From positions 1 to 64,000 of the forward strand of contig NVWB01000009.1 of assembly GCA_002733575.1 (NCBI GenBank): 64,000 nt of DNA, given 5' to 3'. The notes under the pieces are model-generated. The model was given only the letters and a program-made list of their open reading frames with translations. It had not been told where the DNA came from and ran no database searches. Below, piece by piece: positions 32,971-63,332 of this stretch; position 1 is the first letter of the stretch, and each line of letters starts with the position of its first letter. The translations under genes and the position numbers were made by a program. The stretch comes from Blastopirellula sp. (GTDB taxonomy: Bacteria; Planctomycetota; Planctomycetia; Pirellulales; Pirellulaceae).

Positions 32971-34266
32971 ATGAGAATCGTTGCTCTTGCCCTATTCTGT
33001 TTGCCGTTGTTGGTTGGTTGTCCAAGTAACGCACCTGCCCCAGCACCAGCACCAAACGCACCTGTTGCGCCGCCGGCAGTTTCTGTTGAACCAGATGACA
33101 AAGATGTCATTGCAGAGCTCGAAGCTAAAGGTGGACGCTTAACGATTGATGCAAACGGAGTTGTCACTCGCGCCGATTTTGAATCTGCTGTAGTTTCCGA
33201 TGCCGATATTGTGGGGATCGAAAAACTAAAACGACTTCAAGTGCTGAAACTCTACGGTGCTGAAATCACAGACAAAACTGCCGAACTACTCAAAGATCAC
33301 CAAGAGCTTAAAGATGTTTCCTTCACTAACGGAACGATCACAGATGCTGGAATACAACACCTTACCTCTGCCAAAAATCTTTCTGTTATTTCATTGCGAC
33401 GTACCAATATCTCGGACAAAGCCTTGGAGATCATGAAGGCGTTTCCCAAGTTGCGTTCGCTTGATTTAAGGTTCTGCAATATCACAGATGCTGGCATGGC
33501 CCATGTAGCCACCATGGTTAATATCGAAGTATTACGATTAGAAGGGACCGCGGTTGGCGATAAAGGACTGGAGCATATTCAGGGGCTCACCAAAATTAAA
33601 TTCCTCAATTTACGGGATAAATCAGTCACCGATGTTGGTTTTAGCTACATCAAAAACTTTAAAAACCTGCAAACCCTTGAGACGAACGGAGTGGGGGTCA
33701 CCAACGATGGCCTGGCTCATTTGGCAGGTCTGACCAATCTAGAAAAACTACACTTGTTCCGAGCTCAAATTGGTGACGAAGGGCTCATCCACCTCAAAGG
33801 TCTAACCAAACTCAAGGACTTAAAACTTCGACAGACGGGCGTTTTTGGTCCTGGGTTGGAGCATTTAACTGGACTTACCAACTTAGAAATCCTGGATCTG
33901 AGTGAGACAAACCTCAGTGACAAAGGAATGGTTCATCTTGGAAAAATTAAATCACTGACTTCACTTAACCTCTGGCAATCTTATGTCGAGGATGATGGAC
34001 TCGCCAATCTTTCTGGTCTGACGAATCTCAAAATGTTAAACATTGATGAGCTTGGTATAACCGATGCTGGCATCGCTCACTTGGCACCGCTGGTCAATCT
34101 CGAAACCCTGTCGTTGAACGAAAATAATGAGATTTCTGATGATTCCATTGAAGTTCTGTCGAATTTTAAAAAACTTAAAACCTTGAACACGAAGTTCACA
34201 GGCATCAGTGAAGAAGGCATCGAAGAACTTAAAAAATCGGCCCCTGATGTAGAGTGGACCAACTAA
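32971..34266 (+). CDS. Leucine-rich-repeat lipoprotein
   Basis: Protein of 431 residues with a lipoprotein signal peptide: the lipobox LLVG-C17 ends the hydrophobic stretch. A proline/alanine linker follows (PAPAPAPN). Then comes an N-terminal cap (VIAELEAKGGRLTID) shared with the LRR genes at 58.8-63.1 kb. About 14 LRRs of 24 residues follow, of the type LxxLxxLxLxxTxITDxGLxHL. AAGGAAAG lies at good distance before the ATG. LRR lipoproteins of this kind are probably anchored and used for protein-protein contact; no partner is known. It is followed by a strong terminator. Its repeats are much more diverged than those of the 58.8-63.1 kb cluster, so it is an older member. Confidence 0.88.
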   Translation: MRIVALALFCLPLLVGCPSNAPAPAPAPNAPVAPPAVSVEPDDKDVIAELEAKGGRLTIDANGVVTRADFESAVVSDADIVGIEKLKRLQVLKLYGAEITDKTAELLKDHQELKDVSFTNGTITDAGIQHLTSAKNLSVISLRRTNISDKALEIMKAFPKLRSLDLRFCNITDAGMAHVATMVNIEVLRLEGTAVGDKGLEHIQGLTKIKFLNLRDKSVTDVGFSYIKNFKNLQTLETNGVGVTNDGLAHLAGLTNLEKLHLFRAQIGDEGLIHLKGLTKLKDLKLRQTGVFGPGLEHLTGLTNLEILDLSETNLSDKGMVHLGKIKSLTSLNLWQSYVEDDGLANLSGLTNLKMLNIDELGITDAGIAHLAPLVNLETLSLNENNEISDDSIEVLSNFKKLKTLNTKFTGISEEGIEELKKSAPDVEWTN

Positions 34267-58745: not shown

Positions 58746-58854
58746 TTGGGATTGATAATCGAGGCAAGACGTTCGTGTAATCCCAGGTGAATTTCCGGCG
58801 ATGATGTTTATCTAGTATTCCCCATGGGTTCCTTCTGCCGTATCGAAGTGGAAC
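58746..58854 (-). repeat. Orphan copy (A) of the LRR-gene upstream segment
   Basis: From 'ttgggattgataat' to 'gaagtggaac' this stretch matches, with scattered differences, the segments just upstream of the LRR genes at 59555 and 60568, in the same orientation. It has no LRR gene downstream: the DUF481 gene ends 25 bases beyond it. In this copy the frame that stays open in copies B and C is interrupted (ATG then TAA after 4 codons). Confidence 0.85.
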
Positions 58855-59555
58855 TAATATTTTGTTACTACTCTACAATTGGGAAGAGCTATCTTGAGTT
58901 CTAACACTCCGGCATTCGTGATCTGCGTTTTGACGAGGTATAGGTAATCCAGACTAGTCAGGCCTTTCAGATGTTCCAATCTGGCATCCGTGATTTTTGT
59001 GCCGGAGAGGTTCAGGCTTGTCAGTCTGGTAAATCCTTTCAGATGCTCCAATCCCTCATTCGTGATCTGAGTGCCGTTAAGATACAGTTGATTAAGGCTG
59101 GTCAGAGCTTTCAGACGCACCAACCCGGCATCCGTGATTATTGTCTCGCTTAGGGACAGGTAACTCAATCTGGTCAAGCCTTTCAGGTGTTCCAAGCCCG
59201 CATCCGTGATTTTTGTGCCTTTGAGCCCCAGGCTTGTCAGACTTGTCAAGCCTTTCAGATGCTCCAATCCCTCATCCGTGATCTGCGTATTATCGAAGTA
59301 CAGAGTATTCAAACTGGTCAGGCTTCTCAGGTCCTCCAACTCGGCATCCGTGACCTGCGTGTCGCTGAAATGGACTTCAATCACCTCACCTGATTTTTTA
59401 TCGAGAATGACAAAGCCGCCTAACTTTTCGATTTCCTCGATGGCGGCTGCCTCTTCTGATGTTGGCAACGTTTCCTGAACGACTGGCGTAGACTCAGTCC
59501 CGCACCCACACAAGAGTAGAACGAGCATAAACACTAAAGCAAGAAACGGTTTCAT
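58854..59555 (-). CDS. LRR lipoprotein, 24-residue repeats (member 1)
   Basis: Protein of 233 residues. Lipoprotein signal with lipobox LLLC-GC (cysteines near residue 16-18); an N-terminal cap follows (AAAIEEIEKLGGFVILD). Seven LRRs of 24 residues come next, of the form TxITDAGLEHLKGLTSLxxLxL. The C-terminal cap is ELKIALPNCRVVTKY. The start at 59555 gives MKPFLALVF, identical to its two neighbours. The longer open frame (to 59648) continues through conserved upstream DNA but would bury the signal peptide. AAGG is present upstream. Cell-surface or periplasmic protein-binding role is likely; no partner is known. First of three tandem members. Confidence 0.85.
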   Translation of the reverse strand: MKPFLALVFMLVLLLCGCGTESTPVVQETLPTSEEAAAIEEIEKLGGFVILDKKSGEVIEVHFSDTQVTDAELEDLRSLTSLNTLYFDNTQITDEGLEHLKGLTSLTSLGLKGTKITDAGLEHLKGLTRLSYLSLSETIITDAGLVRLKALTSLNQLYLNGTQITNEGLEHLKGFTRLTSLNLSGTKITDARLEHLKGLTSLDYLYLVKTQITNAGVLELKIALPNCRVVTKY

Positions 59556-59677
59556 GATTGAGCCTTGGTTTGGATTGATAATAGAGCTAAGACGTTCGCG
59601 TGGTCCCATGTGAATTTCCGGCGATGACATTTGTCCAGCATTTCCCATGGGTTCCCTCTGCGGTAGCGAAGTGGACC
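59553..59677 (-). repeat. LRR-gene upstream segment, copy B
   Basis: Runs from the start codon of the LRR gene at 59555 upstream to 'gaagtggacc'. It matches copies A and C. It probably carries the promoter and leader of the gene. Confidence 0.85.
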
Positions 59678-59680
59678 TTA

Positions 59681-60568
59681 TTATTCTATCACATCACAAT
59701 TGGGAAGAGCTGCCTTGAGTTCTGACAGCCCGGCGTCCGTGATCTGTGTGTCGTTGAGGTATAGAGTTTTCAGACTGGTCATACCTTTCAGATGTTCCAG
59801 TCCGGCATCCGTGACCTGCGTGTCTTCGAGGTAAAGGTGTCTCAGACCAGTCAAGTCTTTCAGATGTACCAACCCGGCATCCGTGATCTGCGTGTTCCTG
59901 AGGTGCAAGCGATTGAGACTGGTCAGGCCTTTCAGATTTTCCAGTCCAGCGTCCGTGATCTGCGTGTCGCTGAGGTGCAGGATATTGAGACTGGTCACGT
60001 CTTTCAAATGTTCCAGCCCCGCATCCGTGACCTGTGTGCCGTTGAGGCTCAGGTGTGTCAGACTAGTCAGGCCTTTCAGATGTTGCAGTCCGGTATCCGT
60101 GATCTGCGTCTCGCCGAGATACAGAATATCCAGACTGGTCATGCCTTTCAGGTGTTCCAGCTCGGCATCCGTGATTTTCGTGCGGAGGAGATTCAGGGTA
60201 TTCAGTTTGCTCAGGCCTTTCAGATGCTTCAGTCCAACGCCCGTGATCTGCGAGCCGCTGAGGTGCAGGGCATTCAGACTGGTTAAACCTTTCAGATGTT
60301 CCAACCCAGCATCCGTGATTTTTGTGTCTTCAAGGTAAAGATAAGTCAGACTAGTCAAACCTTTTAGATGTTCTAATCCCTCATCCGTGAGCTGCGTGCT
60401 CCAGAGAGTGACTTGAGTCACCTCACCTAATTCGTTGAGCGTGACCAAGCCGCCTAACTTTTTGATTTCCGTGACAGCGGCAGCCTGTTCTAAAGTTGGC
60501 AACGTTTCCTGGACGCACCCGCAGAAGAGTAGAACGATTGGAAACACTAAAGCGAGAAACGGTTTCAT
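59681..60568 (-). CDS. LRR lipoprotein, 24-residue repeats (member 2)
   Basis: Protein of 295 residues with the same signal peptide (MKPFLALVF; lipobox LLFC-GC), the same cap (AAAVTEIKKLGGLVTLN) and ten 24-residue LRRs. It ends with the shared cap ELKAALPNCDVIE. The start at 60568 was chosen as for its neighbour; the frame stays open upstream to 60661 through the duplicated leader. It differs from member 1 mainly in the number of repeats, as expected from slippage or unequal crossing-over within the 72-bp array. It is separated from member 1 by the B leader and 3 bases from its end to copy B. Confidence 0.85.
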   Translation of the reverse strand: MKPFLALVFPIVLLFCGCVQETLPTLEQAAAVTEIKKLGGLVTLNELGEVTQVTLWSTQLTDEGLEHLKGLTSLTYLYLEDTKITDAGLEHLKGLTSLNALHLSGSQITGVGLKHLKGLSKLNTLNLLRTKITDAELEHLKGMTSLDILYLGETQITDTGLQHLKGLTSLTHLSLNGTQVTDAGLEHLKDVTSLNILHLSDTQITDAGLENLKGLTSLNRLHLRNTQITDAGLVHLKDLTGLRHLYLEDTQVTDAGLEHLKGMTSLKTLYLNDTQITDAGLSELKAALPNCDVIE

Positions 60569-60690
60569 GATTGGGCCTTTATTGGGATTGATAATAGAGC
60601 TAAGACGTCCGTGTGGTCCCAGGTGAATTTCTGAAGATGACATTGATCCAGCATTTTCCATGAGTTCCCTCTGCCGTAGCGAAGTGGGAC
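60566..60690 (-). repeat. LRR-gene upstream segment, copy C
   Basis: Upstream segment of the LRR gene starting at 60568, closely matching copy B along its full length; ends 'gaagtgggac'. Confidence 0.85.
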
Positions 60691-63051
60691 TTATTGTTTG
60701 TTTACGTTACATTTGGGAAGAGCTGTCTTGAGTTCTGACAGCCCGGCATCCGTGATCTGCGTGTTGCTGAGGTCCAGGTGTGTCAGACTGGTGAGTCCTT
60801 TCAAATGTTCCAGTCCAGCATCCGTGATCTGCGTGCCGCTGAGGTACAGCTTAGACAGGCTAGTCAGGCCTTTCAGATGTTCGATCCCAGCATCAGTGAT
60901 CTGCGTATTATCGAGGACCAAGTGTGTCAGGCTGGTCAGTCCTTTCAGATGTACCAGCCCGGTATCCGTGATCTGCGTGCTAAGGAGGCCCAGTGTATTC
61001 AGTTTGGTCATGCCTTTCAGGTGCACCAATCCCTCGCCCGTGACCTGCGTCTCGGAGAGGCCCAGGTGTGTCAGACGAGTCAAGCCTTTCAGATGTTCCA
61101 GTCCGGCACCCGTGATCTTCGTGTCGTTGAGGGTCAGGTTATTCAGACTGGTCAAGCCTTTCAGATGTTCCAGTCCGGCATCCGTAATCTGCGTGTTGTG
61201 GAGGCCCAGTGTATGCAGTTTGGTCATGCCTTTCAGGTGCACCAATCCCTCGCCCGTGACCTGCGTGCCACCAAGGGTCAGGATATTCAGACTGGTCAAA
61301 CCTTTCAGATGTTCAAGCCCGGCATCCGTGATCTGCTTGTCATCGAGCATGACTAGAGTCACCTCACCTGATTTGTTGAGCACGACCAAGCCGCCTAACT
61401 TTTTGATTTCCGTGATTGCGTCAACCTGTTGTGACGGTGACAATGTTTCCTTGCTCGTCTTCACGTTTTCTACACTAATGCGGCAACTGGGCAATGCACG
61501 TTTCAACTGTGCAACCCCGTCTCTGCTGATAAACGTACCTGAAATATCAAGGTTTTTAAGTGACTCTAACGCGAGTAAATGCTTGAGCCCGGTATCCGTG
61601 ACCTGTGTGCCTTCGAGCATCAGGTATTCTAGACTGGTCAGACTTTTCAAGTGCTTCAGTCCAGCATCCGTGATCTGAGTGTCTTTGAGAAATACGGCTT
61701 CCAGACTGGTCAAGCCTTTCAGATGTTCTAGCCCGGCATCCGTGATCGGCGTGTCTTCGAGCATCAGGCCTTTTAGACTGGTCAGACTTTTCAAATGTTT
61801 CAGTCCAGCATCCGTGATCTGAGTGTCTTTGAGAACTACGGCTTCCAGACTAGTCAGGCCTTTCAGATGTTCTAGCCCGGCATCCGTGATCTGCGTGTTA
61901 TCGAGGACCAGGGTTGTCAGACTGGTGAGGCCTTTCAGATGTTCCAGCCCAGCATCCGTGATCTGCGTGCCGCTGAGGTTCAGGTATTCTAGACTGGTCA
62001 AGGCTTGCAGATATTTTAGTCCAGCATCCGTGATCTGTGTTTCGTAGAGAGTGACTTTAGTTACCGAACCTAATTGGTTGATCACAACCTTGCCGCCTAA
62101 TTTTTTGATTTCTGTGACAGCGAGTTGAGCTGTTGGCGAAATTTCCAGTTCTTTTATTACTCTGCAATTGGAAAGAGCTGCTATAAGTTTTGACAGTCCA
62201 GCGTTCGTGATCTGCGTGTCGTTGAGGTGCAGTTCATTCAGACTGCTCAATCCTTTCAGATGTTTCAGGCCGGCATCCGTGATCTGCGTGCCGTTGAGGA
62301 ACAAGAATTCCAGACTGGTCATGCCTTTCAGGTCTTCCAGTCCAGCATCCGTGAGCTGAGTGCCCTTGAGGTCCAGGGCAATCAGACTGGTCAGGCCTTT
62401 CAGGTATTCCAGTCCAATACCCGTGATCTGCGTGCCGTTGAGACTTAGGCCCTTCAGACTGGTCAGGCCTTTCAGGTGCTCCAGTCCAGCATCCGTGATC
62501 TGAGTGCCCTTGAGGACCAGTTTTTCCAGACTGGTCATGCCTTTCAGATATTTCAGCCCGGCATCCGTGACCTGAGTGTCACTGAGGCCCAGGTTTTTTA
62601 GACTAGTCAAGCCTTTCAGGTGCACCAGCCCGGCGTGCGTGATCTGCGTGTTGCTGAGGCCCAGGATATTCAGACTGGTCAGACTTTTCAAGTGTTTCAA
62701 TCCAGCATCCGTGATCTGAGTGTCGTTGAGATACAGGCCGTTCAGACTAGTCAGGCCTTTGAGGTGTTTCAGTCCGGTATCTGTGATTTTCGTGCCGTTG
62801 AGGAGCAGGTCTTTTAGACTGGTCAAGCCTTTGAGATGTTCCAGCCCAGCATCCGTGATCTGCGTGTCTTTGAGAATGACATGAATCACCTCACCTGATG
62901 GGTTGAGCGAGACCTTGCCGCCTAACTTTTCGATTTCCGCGATAGCGTCAACCAGTTCTGATGTTGGCAACTTTTCCTGGGCGGAAAGCGTAGACACAGG
63001 CCCGCAGAAGAGTACAACGAACGAAAACACTAAAGCGAGAAACGGTTTCAT
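60691..63051 (-). CDS. Large LRR protein with three cap-plus-LRR modules (member 3)
   Basis: Protein of 786 residues. Signal peptide MKPFLALVF as in its neighbours, but the lipobox is degraded: after LFCG the site reads VSTLSAQE, fitting signal peptidase I rather than lipid attachment. Three successive modules follow, each starting with a cap of the form AIxEIxKLGGxVxxN (near residues 37, 309 and 542) and ending with a cap of the form ALxxCxV. They contain 10, 8 and 9 LRRs of 24 residues. The protein therefore looks like a fusion of three single-module genes whose signal peptides and leaders were lost. It shares upstream DNA only in part (copy D). Function unknown; a large exported binding surface is likely. 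Confidence 0.88.
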   Translation of the reverse strand: MKPFLALVFSFVVLFCGPVSTLSAQEKLPTSELVDAIAEIEKLGGKVSLNPSGEVIHVILKDTQITDAGLEHLKGLTSLKDLLLNGTKITDTGLKHLKGLTSLNGLYLNDTQITDAGLKHLKSLTSLNILGLSNTQITHAGLVHLKGLTSLKNLGLSDTQVTDAGLKYLKGMTSLEKLVLKGTQITDAGLEHLKGLTSLKGLSLNGTQITGIGLEYLKGLTSLIALDLKGTQLTDAGLEDLKGMTSLEFLFLNGTQITDAGLKHLKGLSSLNELHLNDTQITNAGLSKLIAALSNCRVIKELEISPTAQLAVTEIKKLGGKVVINQLGSVTKVTLYETQITDAGLKYLQALTSLEYLNLSGTQITDAGLEHLKGLTSLTTLVLDNTQITDAGLEHLKGLTSLEAVVLKDTQITDAGLKHLKSLTSLKGLMLEDTPITDAGLEHLKGLTSLEAVFLKDTQITDAGLKHLKSLTSLEYLMLEGTQVTDTGLKHLLALESLKNLDISGTFISRDGVAQLKRALPSCRISVENVKTSKETLSPSQQVDAITEIKKLGGLVVLNKSGEVTLVMLDDKQITDAGLEHLKGLTSLNILTLGGTQVTGEGLVHLKGMTKLHTLGLHNTQITDAGLEHLKGLTSLNNLTLNDTKITGAGLEHLKGLTRLTHLGLSETQVTGEGLVHLKGMTKLNTLGLLSTQITDTGLVHLKGLTSLTHLVLDNTQITDAGIEHLKGLTSLSKLYLSGTQITDAGLEHLKGLTSLTHLDLSNTQITDAGLSELKTALPKCNVNKQ

Positions 63052-63082
63052 GATTGGGCCTTTATTGGGATTGATAATAGAA
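63049..63082 (-). repeat. LRR-gene upstream segment, copy D (partial)
   Basis: The first 34 bases upstream of the 786-residue LRR gene match copies B and C (catgattgggcctttattgg and on to ataatagaacc), then similarity stops. This marks the right-hand limit of the duplicated block. Confidence 0.7.
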
Positions 63083-63332
63083 CCAATTCAGGCTCTCAAT
63101 GCCTCACAGTTTAACATTACCCCCTGTCGTGTCAAACTCCTCCCTCTTTGTGACTCCCGTCCTGTATCGTAGGCAAACGGGCGAAAAGTTATCTGGGAAA
63201 TGTGGGTTAAGGCAAGTTCTCAGCCGCATTCTGGCCAAGTATACTGGTTTGATGGCCTTAATCGACCAAAGACCCTTTCCACCAGTTTGCATCTCACTAT
63301 ATCATTGTCTCAATTCCCCACTGAGAAACATC

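What the first reader, a model, noticed from the sequence alone, without database searches (positions are those of the whole stretch)
60691..63051. Triple-module LRR protein built by gene fusion
Three internal caps (near residues 37, 309 and 542), each followed by 8-10 LRRs and a C-terminal cap, mirror the single-module neighbours. The lipobox is lost in the fusion product but kept in members 1 and 2, so location may have changed from lipid-anchored to released.
Basis: partly seen in the sequence, partly recalled or inferred. Interest (0 to 1): 0.55.

Follow-up and report, generated by a model that had tools for sequence, protein, structure and literature searches.

The report
Three-module LRR protein, diversified family
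A bacterium carries a genome-wide set of exported, horseshoe-shaped binding proteins whose scaffold is nearly constant while the presumed binding face differs in almost every repeat, and the gene flagged here is the longest complete one read, three such horseshoes joined in one chain.

Summary
Window 60691-63051 (-) is one 786-aa frame with three N-terminal caps, 10/8/9 leucine-rich repeats (LRRs) and three C-caps. It has a signal-peptide-like start but no lipobox, unlike its two downstream neighbours.

The modules belong to a family found on 15 contigs of this draft planctomycete genome. Neighbouring modules are no more alike than distant ones (cap identity 0.712 within arrays, 0.718 shuffled, p 0.65). 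Fusion is recurrent: 4 of 16 complete signal-peptide genes have two or three caps. Lipobox loss is not caused by fusion: one single-module member also lacks it.

210 internal repeats carry 206 different five-residue concave faces, although scaffold silent sites differ only half as often as in control LRR genes. Concave divergence hardly depends on scaffold divergence. Five first-in-line genes share a promoter-like block; later genes follow a shared noncoding spacer.

Best reading: a lineage-specific repertoire of exported ligand-binding proteins, diversified at the concave face, with fusion as one way to lengthen the binder. Positive selection is probable but not proved (pN/pS inside the variable codons 1.11, interval 0.99-1.22). 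Ligands are unknown.

The parts
60691..63051 (-). 786-aa three-module cap-LRR protein with signal-peptide-like start, first gene of its array
   Evidence: ORF; LRR Pfam; model
63108..63135 (-). promoter-like pair TTGACA / 16 nt / TAAACT upstream of the first gene; the block is shared with four other first-in-line genes
   Evidence: read; upstream block 63031-63165 matched at C64, C20 (twice) and C230 at 73-90%; a short 78% match at C86
62980..63051 (-). signal-peptide-like start MKPFLALVFSFVVLFCGPVSTLSA, no lipobox, possible signal peptidase I site A|Q
   Evidence: AQ kept in 4 of 4 members without lipobox; no signal-peptide predictor was run
62152..62961 (-). module 1: N-cap, 10 LRR strands, C-cap (residues 31-300)
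   Evidence: model; best cap match a C20 gene at 0.883
61468..62139 (-). module 2: N-cap, 8 LRR strands, divergent C-cap (residues 305-528)
   Evidence: model; most divergent of the five local caps
60694..61437 (-). module 3: N-cap, 9 LRR strands, C-cap (residues 539-786); preceded by family linker KETLSPSQQVDAITEIKKLGG and a flexible stretch 529-541
   Evidence: model
60569..60690 (-). conserved noncoding intercistronic spacer with a possible hairpin just after the stop
   Evidence: 26 matches in own genome for 60572-60702, itself included, 15 of them over 70 nt; flat codon-phase variation; hairpin energy
59681..60568 (-). single-module cap-LRR lipoprotein, 295 aa from MKPF
59556..59680 (-). 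second copy of the spacer
   Evidence: match 59559-59685
58854..59555 (-). single-module cap-LRR lipoprotein, 233 aa from MKPF
58746..58853 (-). third spacer copy with no family gene after it
   Evidence: match 58746-58866; sequence

Best explanation
The gene is the longest complete member read of a lineage-specific family of exported cap-LRR binding proteins. Shown by sequence and model: each unit is a signal-peptide-like start (usually a lipoprotein one) or a transmembrane start, a short linker, a helix-hairpin N-cap, a solenoid of 24-residue LRRs and a C-cap; units sit in arrays or alone; five first-in-line genes share a promoter-like block and later genes follow a shared noncoding spacer; in four complete genes two or three modules are joined in frame, and three of the five joints run from a C-cap into sequence like the linker that follows the signal peptide in single genes. 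Shown: the five residues that the LRR fold places on the concave strand face differ in nearly every repeat, while the remaining scaffold is close to constant, also at many silent sites. Inferred: recombination between near-identical scaffold stretches shuffles and multiplies repeats and modules, selection favours new concave surfaces, and the products bind varied outside partners (cell-surface polymers, other cells, phage or predators) at the envelope. In the 786-aa protein three binding arcs act in one chain, probably released or periplasmic and not lipid-anchored.
For: Anatomy. Family spread: 119 LRR matches in own genome at E 0.001, distant LRR genes included; 26 spacer matches; family genes on 15 contigs. 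Joints. Concave hypervariability: 243 repeats, entropy 3.6-4.0 bits at positions 3, 5, 7; 193 of 210 core triplets and 206 of 210 five-residue faces distinct. Decoupling: pairs with 2-5 scaffold differences of 57 nt already differ at 0.80-0.93 of the core residues, as do more distant pairs at 0.91-0.93. Rate: pN at core codons 0.643 against pS at scaffold 0.414, ratio 1.58 (bootstrap over genes 1.49-1.69). Core codons end in C in 81% of their C/T endings against 44% in 15 other window genes, and always-silent C/T differences are 0.31 against 0.47 for transitions at each of the two other codon positions. Controls: 205 repeats of 20 other LRR genes (19 from other genomes, one from this) are equally variable on the concave face but differ at silent scaffold sites in 0.69 against 0.34. 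A related pattern in other genera.
Against: Within the core codons themselves pN/pS is only 1.11 with an interval of 0.99-1.22 that includes 1, so relaxed constraint plus scaffold homogenisation fits too. High concave variability is a general LRR property, and one control gene (L012) is also homogenised. Five controls have C-rich third positions too (L012, L013, L016, L017, L020). Of the four pairs with 0-1 scaffold differences one is identical throughout; it joins two contig ends (C268, C325) and may be one locus. No ligand, no expression data, no second strain. Family genes reach contig ends on C325, C268, C49, C146 and C168, so repeat numbers elsewhere may be wrong. Signal peptide and cap distances across 15 genes are not correlated (rho 0.17, p 0.18), but a star-like tree would give the same, so recombination is not proved.
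Confidence: 0.6

Rival explanations
1. Local fusion: the triple gene arose by deletion of stop, spacer and signal peptide between adjacent genes of this cluster, or by duplication of a module inside one gene.
For: Modules 1 and 3 are 0.81 identical in the cap; the linker before module 3 is like the family's post-signal linker; one clade is not rejected (p-AU 0.12 for five caps, 0.16 for three).
Against: Within-array caps are no closer than across arrays (p 0.65); module 1 pairs with a C20 gene (94/81, not starred); module 2 is distant from all; best matches along the gene move between contigs.
Confidence: 0.3
2. Ordinary LRR drift: an old expansion with loose constraint on the concave face, scaffold kept alike by purifying selection and codon preference, no selection for diversity.
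For: Controls have equally variable concave faces; pN/pS inside core codons is near 1.
Against: The same leucine is mostly CTG at position 1 and mostly CTC at position 6, which a general codon preference does not explain; core codons end mostly in C while the genome does not; coding change in the core exceeds silent scaffold change.
Confidence: 0.3
3. Assembly artefact: repeats on different contigs were joined falsely and the triple gene does not exist.
For: Draft genome of 438 contigs, 88% complete; several family loci end at contig ends.
Against: The array lies inside a 67.3-kb contig with non-LRR genes on both sides; four fusions have different joints; a two-module gene also occurs in another genus (L095).
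Confidence: 0.07
4. Retroelement-driven mutagenesis (a diversity-generating retroelement) makes the variable codons.
For: Variable codons are largely NNC, with AAC the commonest at positions 5 and 7.
Against: Scaffold adenines next to them are conserved (for example 233 of 243 at the middle base of codon 10), whereas such elements (recalled) mutate template adenines in general; hundreds of targets in many genes are not typical (recalled). No search for a reverse transcriptase was made.
Confidence: 0.02

Closest known systems
GALA-like (GL-LRR) branch of the CC-LRR subfamily (PMC2244805, passages read)
   Same: 24-residue repeats with an ITD/VTD-type motif, reported in Gemmata and Rhodopirellula; GALA chains 9j7j and 4xa9 are among the sequence matches
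   Different: No F-box; signal-peptide-like start; repeats nearly constant outside the concave face; arrays with shared spacer
Internalins of Listeria (InlA, InlH, InlK)
   Same: Exported LRR binding proteins (recalled); weak NCBIfam matches (295-aa neighbour to InlH 1.2e-19, 786-aa protein to InlK 2.6e-10); InlA among Foldseek hits
   Different: Far below NCBIfam cut-offs (70 bits against 1050, 39 against 1100); no cell-wall sorting domain among the Pfam matches
Variable lymphocyte receptors of jawless fish (recalled; listings)
   Same: LRR modules with hypervariable concave face on a fixed scaffold
   Different: Genomic genes of a bacterium, each with its own start; no evidence of assembly in the cell
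Leishmania promastigote surface antigen LRR family (PMC2584048, listing and abstract start only)
   Same: Surface LRR gene family; its title reports positive selection and recombination
   Different: Eukaryotic; not compared by sequence here
Cap-LRR lipoprotein-like genes in other genera of the same family (G246, G248, G077)
   Same: Cap, 24-residue repeats with variable concave face, lipoprotein-like start in those read to the start, one two-module gene (L095)
   Different: Different start (MKRLL...), 49-59% identity; spacer not compared

Membership tests
LRR superfamily | Curated LRR models above gathering score | tested here: met
   LRR_4 221 bits against 27, LRR_8 161 against 27
GALA-like / CC-LRR subfamily | 24-residue repeat with ITD-type motif | tested here: met
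   243 repeats LxxLxLxxTQITDAGLEHLKGLTS; motif description read in PMC2244805
GALA effectors | F-box domain | tested here: not met
   no F-box domain in the Pfam scan at E 0.01; the one F-box-named model matched covers LRRs
Internalins | NCBIfam internalin model above cut-off | tested here: not met
   39 bits (786 aa, InlK) and 70 bits (295 aa, InlH) against cut-offs 1100 and 1050
Bacterial lipoproteins (786-aa protein) | lipobox with Cys | tested here: not met
   no match (recalled pattern)
Bacterial lipoproteins (295- and 233-aa proteins) | lipobox with Cys | tested here: met
   Cys18 in both; lipidation itself not tested
Variable lymphocyte receptors | hypervariable concave face on fixed LRR scaffold | tested here: met
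Variable lymphocyte receptors | gene assembled from flanking cassettes in the cell | not testable with these tools
   needs several strains or long reads of one culture
Anti-phage defence proteins | PADLOC model match | tested here: not met
   786-aa and 295-aa proteins scanned; only a weak ThsB partial match, E 0.004, 32 residues
Diversity-generating retroelement targets | reverse transcriptase and template copy near the variable region | not tested
   argued against only from conserved scaffold adenines

The most novel reading that the evidence does not exclude
A bacterial analogue of the lamprey receptor system: hundreds of cassette-like LRR units with a fixed scaffold, actively recombined and selected for new concave faces, giving each lineage its own repertoire of recognition proteins (for kin, prey, predator or phage), with in-frame fusion as a way to make multivalent binders.
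Probability: 0.25. Interest if true: 0.85.

Novelty: new variant of a known kind. Interest (0 to 1): 0.5.

Why it matters
LRR genes are widespread among the relatives: all 29 other genomes of the first search have matches. I found no paper giving the purpose of such planctomycete LRR proteins (searches, open-licence papers only). A family whose scaffold is young while its concave face is saturated with change points to recognition of varied partners. That makes the question testable: sequence several strains, measure turnover of concave codons, and screen cloned modules for ligands. If units recombine within one culture, this would be a prokaryotic receptor repertoire built on the same fold as the lamprey one.

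Tried and rejected
Spacer as an extended N-terminus or upstream peptide: in 11 spacers variation is flat over codon phases (0.121, 0.115, 0.113) while the signal peptide shows the coding pattern (0.150, 0.101, 0.226), so the start is MKPF.

Post-stop hairpin as a genome-wide REP element: the core pattern occurs 22 times with up to 2 mismatches (reversed control 4), and 20 of the 22 lie beside family genes, the others being C64:50821 and C306:1493. Mean energy of 25 copies is -7.1 against a shuffled mean of -4.1 and a best shuffled mean of -5.5, but the consensus fold has little covariation, so no function is claimed.

Spread by phages or plasmids: no relative in IMG/VR (45 stretches matched a pattern, none confirmed). 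In plasmids 25 records match, all under 60% identity; the 8 rows listed have at most 38%. No common neighbour gene or transposase stood out in the starts of flanking ORFs of 12 loci read by eye; they were not run through a family search.

Diversity-generating retroelement: argued against from conserved scaffold adenines; no reverse transcriptase search was made.

Module tree: the caps are short (114 columns), 22 of 35 inner branches are open, and the bootstrap had not settled, so the tree says little inside the family. Its count of 2 changes for the local caps leaves out 19 other family caps and is not used. The cap-to-C-terminus comparison was spoiled by unaligned ends (mean distance 0.62) and is not used.

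Fusions in other genomes: not searched systematically; one two-cap gene was seen while reading 8 stretches from 6 other genomes.

Rows dropped: of 31 caps the 7 TM-anchored ones were left out of the array test; the C168 module was in neither. C-cap-like repeats were dropped for (213 of 243 kept), and for one search also one overlapping out-of-frame ORF on C20 (210 kept). Control genes with fewer than 6 repeats were not used; L022 and L067 gave none. Two genes cut or broken at the C-terminus were left out of the lipobox table (16 of 18 used). In some searches the coordinates of the neighbours included one codon before the start, and the stop codon.

In one search at most 20 candidates per genome were scored. 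A leader-block match on a further contig, C233, was not read.

Full report
Observation. The frame at 60691-63051 (-) codes for 786 residues. Its convincing Pfam content is LRRs. The AlphaFold2 model from the single sequence has confidence under 50 only in the first 29 residues and in 529-541 between modules 2 and 3. It shows three times the plan N-cap helix and hairpin, LRR solenoid, C-cap helix and strand, with 10, 8 and 9 LRR-type strands. Modules 1 and 2 abut; modules 2 and 3 are separated by a flexible linker. pTM is 0.46, so the relative placing of modules is not known. The 50 Foldseek rows shown against PDB are LRR proteins: plant and Toll-like receptor ectodomains, the Chlorobium Roco LRR domain and internalin A.

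The gene is part of a genome-wide family. The window is the first 64 kb of a 67.3-kb contig in an unnamed 9.25-Mb draft genome of 438 contigs, with planctomycete-type domains such as PSCyt1 and PSD1 in the window. The 786-aa protein has 119 matches in its own genome, distant LRR genes included. Reading the loci gave family genes or pieces on contigs C7, C20 (two arrays), C64, C404, C180, C325, C86, C230, C288, C39, C17, C49, C146, C268 and C168. Two N-terminal forms prevail: MKPFLALVF signal peptides, and a transmembrane form (MNEPDNQ...FSMRTLF...) with the cap AVEWVLANGGKV; C17 joins a different membrane start to a lipoprotein-type linker and cap. A cap-LRR start is also fused to the end of a large repeat protein on C168, cut by the contig end.

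Array anatomy. Five first-in-line genes are preceded by a shared block with TTGACA, 16 nt and TAAACT (63108-63135 in the window; block matched at C64, two places on C20 and C230, 73-90%, and in a short stretch at C86). Leaders on C180 and C39 have a different block with TATAAT (by eye). Later genes are preceded by a shared spacer; the window copy has 26 matches in the genome, itself included, 15 of them over 70 nt. The spacer is noncoding and begins with a possible hairpin after the stop. A spacer without a family gene closes the window's array. I infer operons; transcription was not tested.

Fusion. Of 18 signal-peptide genes, 16 are complete at the C-terminus; 4 of these have two or three caps (786 aa; C20 565 aa; C180 340 aa; C230 544 aa). 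Of the five joints, three run from a C-cap into sequence like the linker after the signal peptide: C180 (ALPKCSVMK then SQEPLPTSEPVDAIAEIKK), C20 (ALPKCEVRK then LQDRLLTSQQADIAEFKK) and the second joint of the 786-aa protein. Its first joint (SNCRVIK then ELEISPTAQLAVTEIKK) resembles that linker only weakly, and the C230 joint lies inside a repeat. A two-cap gene also occurs in another genus (L095 in G246). So fusion is recurrent, and module number is one axis of variation beside repeat number (a two-repeat shift duplication in module 2 at 84%).

Local origin. Among 24 caps, within-array identity is 0.712 against 0.718 for shuffled labels (p 0.65). The tree separates the family from seven caps of other genera (99/96) and the transmembrane caps from the rest (99/99), but is mostly unresolved inside. 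Module 1 pairs with a C20 gene (94/81), the 233-aa neighbour falls with genes of C325, C20 and C180 (92/84), neither branch starred, and neither one clade of the five local caps nor one of the three 786 caps is rejected (p-AU 0.12 and 0.16).

Lipobox. The pattern (recalled) is met by 14 of 18 genes and missed by 4, all with CGPxSxxxAQ, which looks like a signal peptidase I type with the same A|Q end. Three of the four are fusions, one is single-module, and one fusion keeps the lipobox (Fisher p 0.027, post hoc, 16 genes).

Concave face. From 243 repeats in 30 frames, positions 3, 5, 7 have entropies of 3.99, 3.81 and 3.63 bits, positions 2 and 8 have 2.97 and 2.62, and the others at most 2.1. 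In the model the strands mostly cover repeat positions 3-7; by the known LRR geometry 3, 5, 7 then point out and 4, 6 in. Among 210 internal repeats 193 triplets and 206 five-residue faces are distinct. Repeats with almost identical scaffold DNA differ in the core about as much as distant ones, apart from one pair that is identical throughout and may be one locus split over two contig ends. Silent scaffold mismatch among equal residues is 0.34 against 0.69 in 205 control repeats from 20 genes, while core residues are as different as in controls (0.92 and 0.91). pN core over pS scaffold is 1.58 (1.49-1.69), but pN over pS inside core codons is 1.11 (0.99-1.22). The like-for-like comparison of transitions in core codons (0.47, 0.47 at the first two positions; 0.31 silent) and the 81% C endings against 44% in other window genes favour faster coding change, though five controls are C-rich too. 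I read this as probable diversifying selection together with scaffold homogenisation; relaxed constraint alone is not excluded.

Range. All 29 relatives of the first search have LRR matches, none close: listed identities are at most 51%, the list being capped. In 241 genomes of the same family, 68 genera, 7 have a match to the family's start at E 1e-15 or better: the own genome (20 scored places, 60-81%) and 6 others at 49-61%, with at most 20 candidates scored per genome. Some of these carry cap-LRR genes with a lipoprotein-like start of their own and low silent divergence (L092 0.20 over 12 repeats, L096 0.18 over 6, the latter cut at its start). So the theme recurs in the family while this set was found in this genome only.

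Function. No PADLOC match of weight, NCBIfam model above cut-off or solved relative gives a specific role. Export, fixed scaffold, variable face and copy number suggest ligand recognition at the envelope. Literature searches listed no report of such a bacterial family; only open-licence PMC papers are searched, so this is weak evidence of absence. I read passages of PMC2244805 only; the other papers were seen as listings with the start of the abstract.

I mended several statements against the calls: the promoter block is shared by five first-in-line genes and not by most arrays, the relatives are 29 besides the own genome, and a tree count that left out 19 caps was withdrawn.

Noticed in passing
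L064 (G000:C168:14000-16392): The end of a large protein with repeated 'DVDGDGDLD' blocks continues in frame into a cap-LRR start (SSLSPSELADAIAEIKKLGG...), cut by the contig end: a module attached to an unrelated protein, or a misjoin.
   Followed up: partly
L050 (C20), frames at oriented 1762-2605 and 2316-2913: A family gene without C-cap overlaps a frame that holds an LRR end, which suggests a frameshifted copy.
   Followed up: no
L055 (C325), after the stop at oriented 2873: The post-stop hairpin has 10 uninterrupted outer pairs here (-17.3 kcal/mol), while most copies are imperfect.
   Followed up: partly
L055 (C325), L053 (C404), L050 (C20): Transmembrane-anchored family members share one array with lipoprotein members, so one array encodes differently anchored versions of the same module.
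   Followed up: partly
window 32971-34266 (+): A 431-aa LRR protein of a more distant group (34-44% to the 786-aa protein) lies in the same window.
   Followed up: no
L062 (C49), oriented 898-1416: An ORF that by eye resembles a tyrosine recombinase lies beside a truncated family gene at a contig end.
   Followed up: no
L012 (G028:C88): A single 542-aa LRR gene of another family in the order has a similarly homogenised scaffold (silent mismatch 0.33) with a variable concave face (0.81).
   Followed up: no
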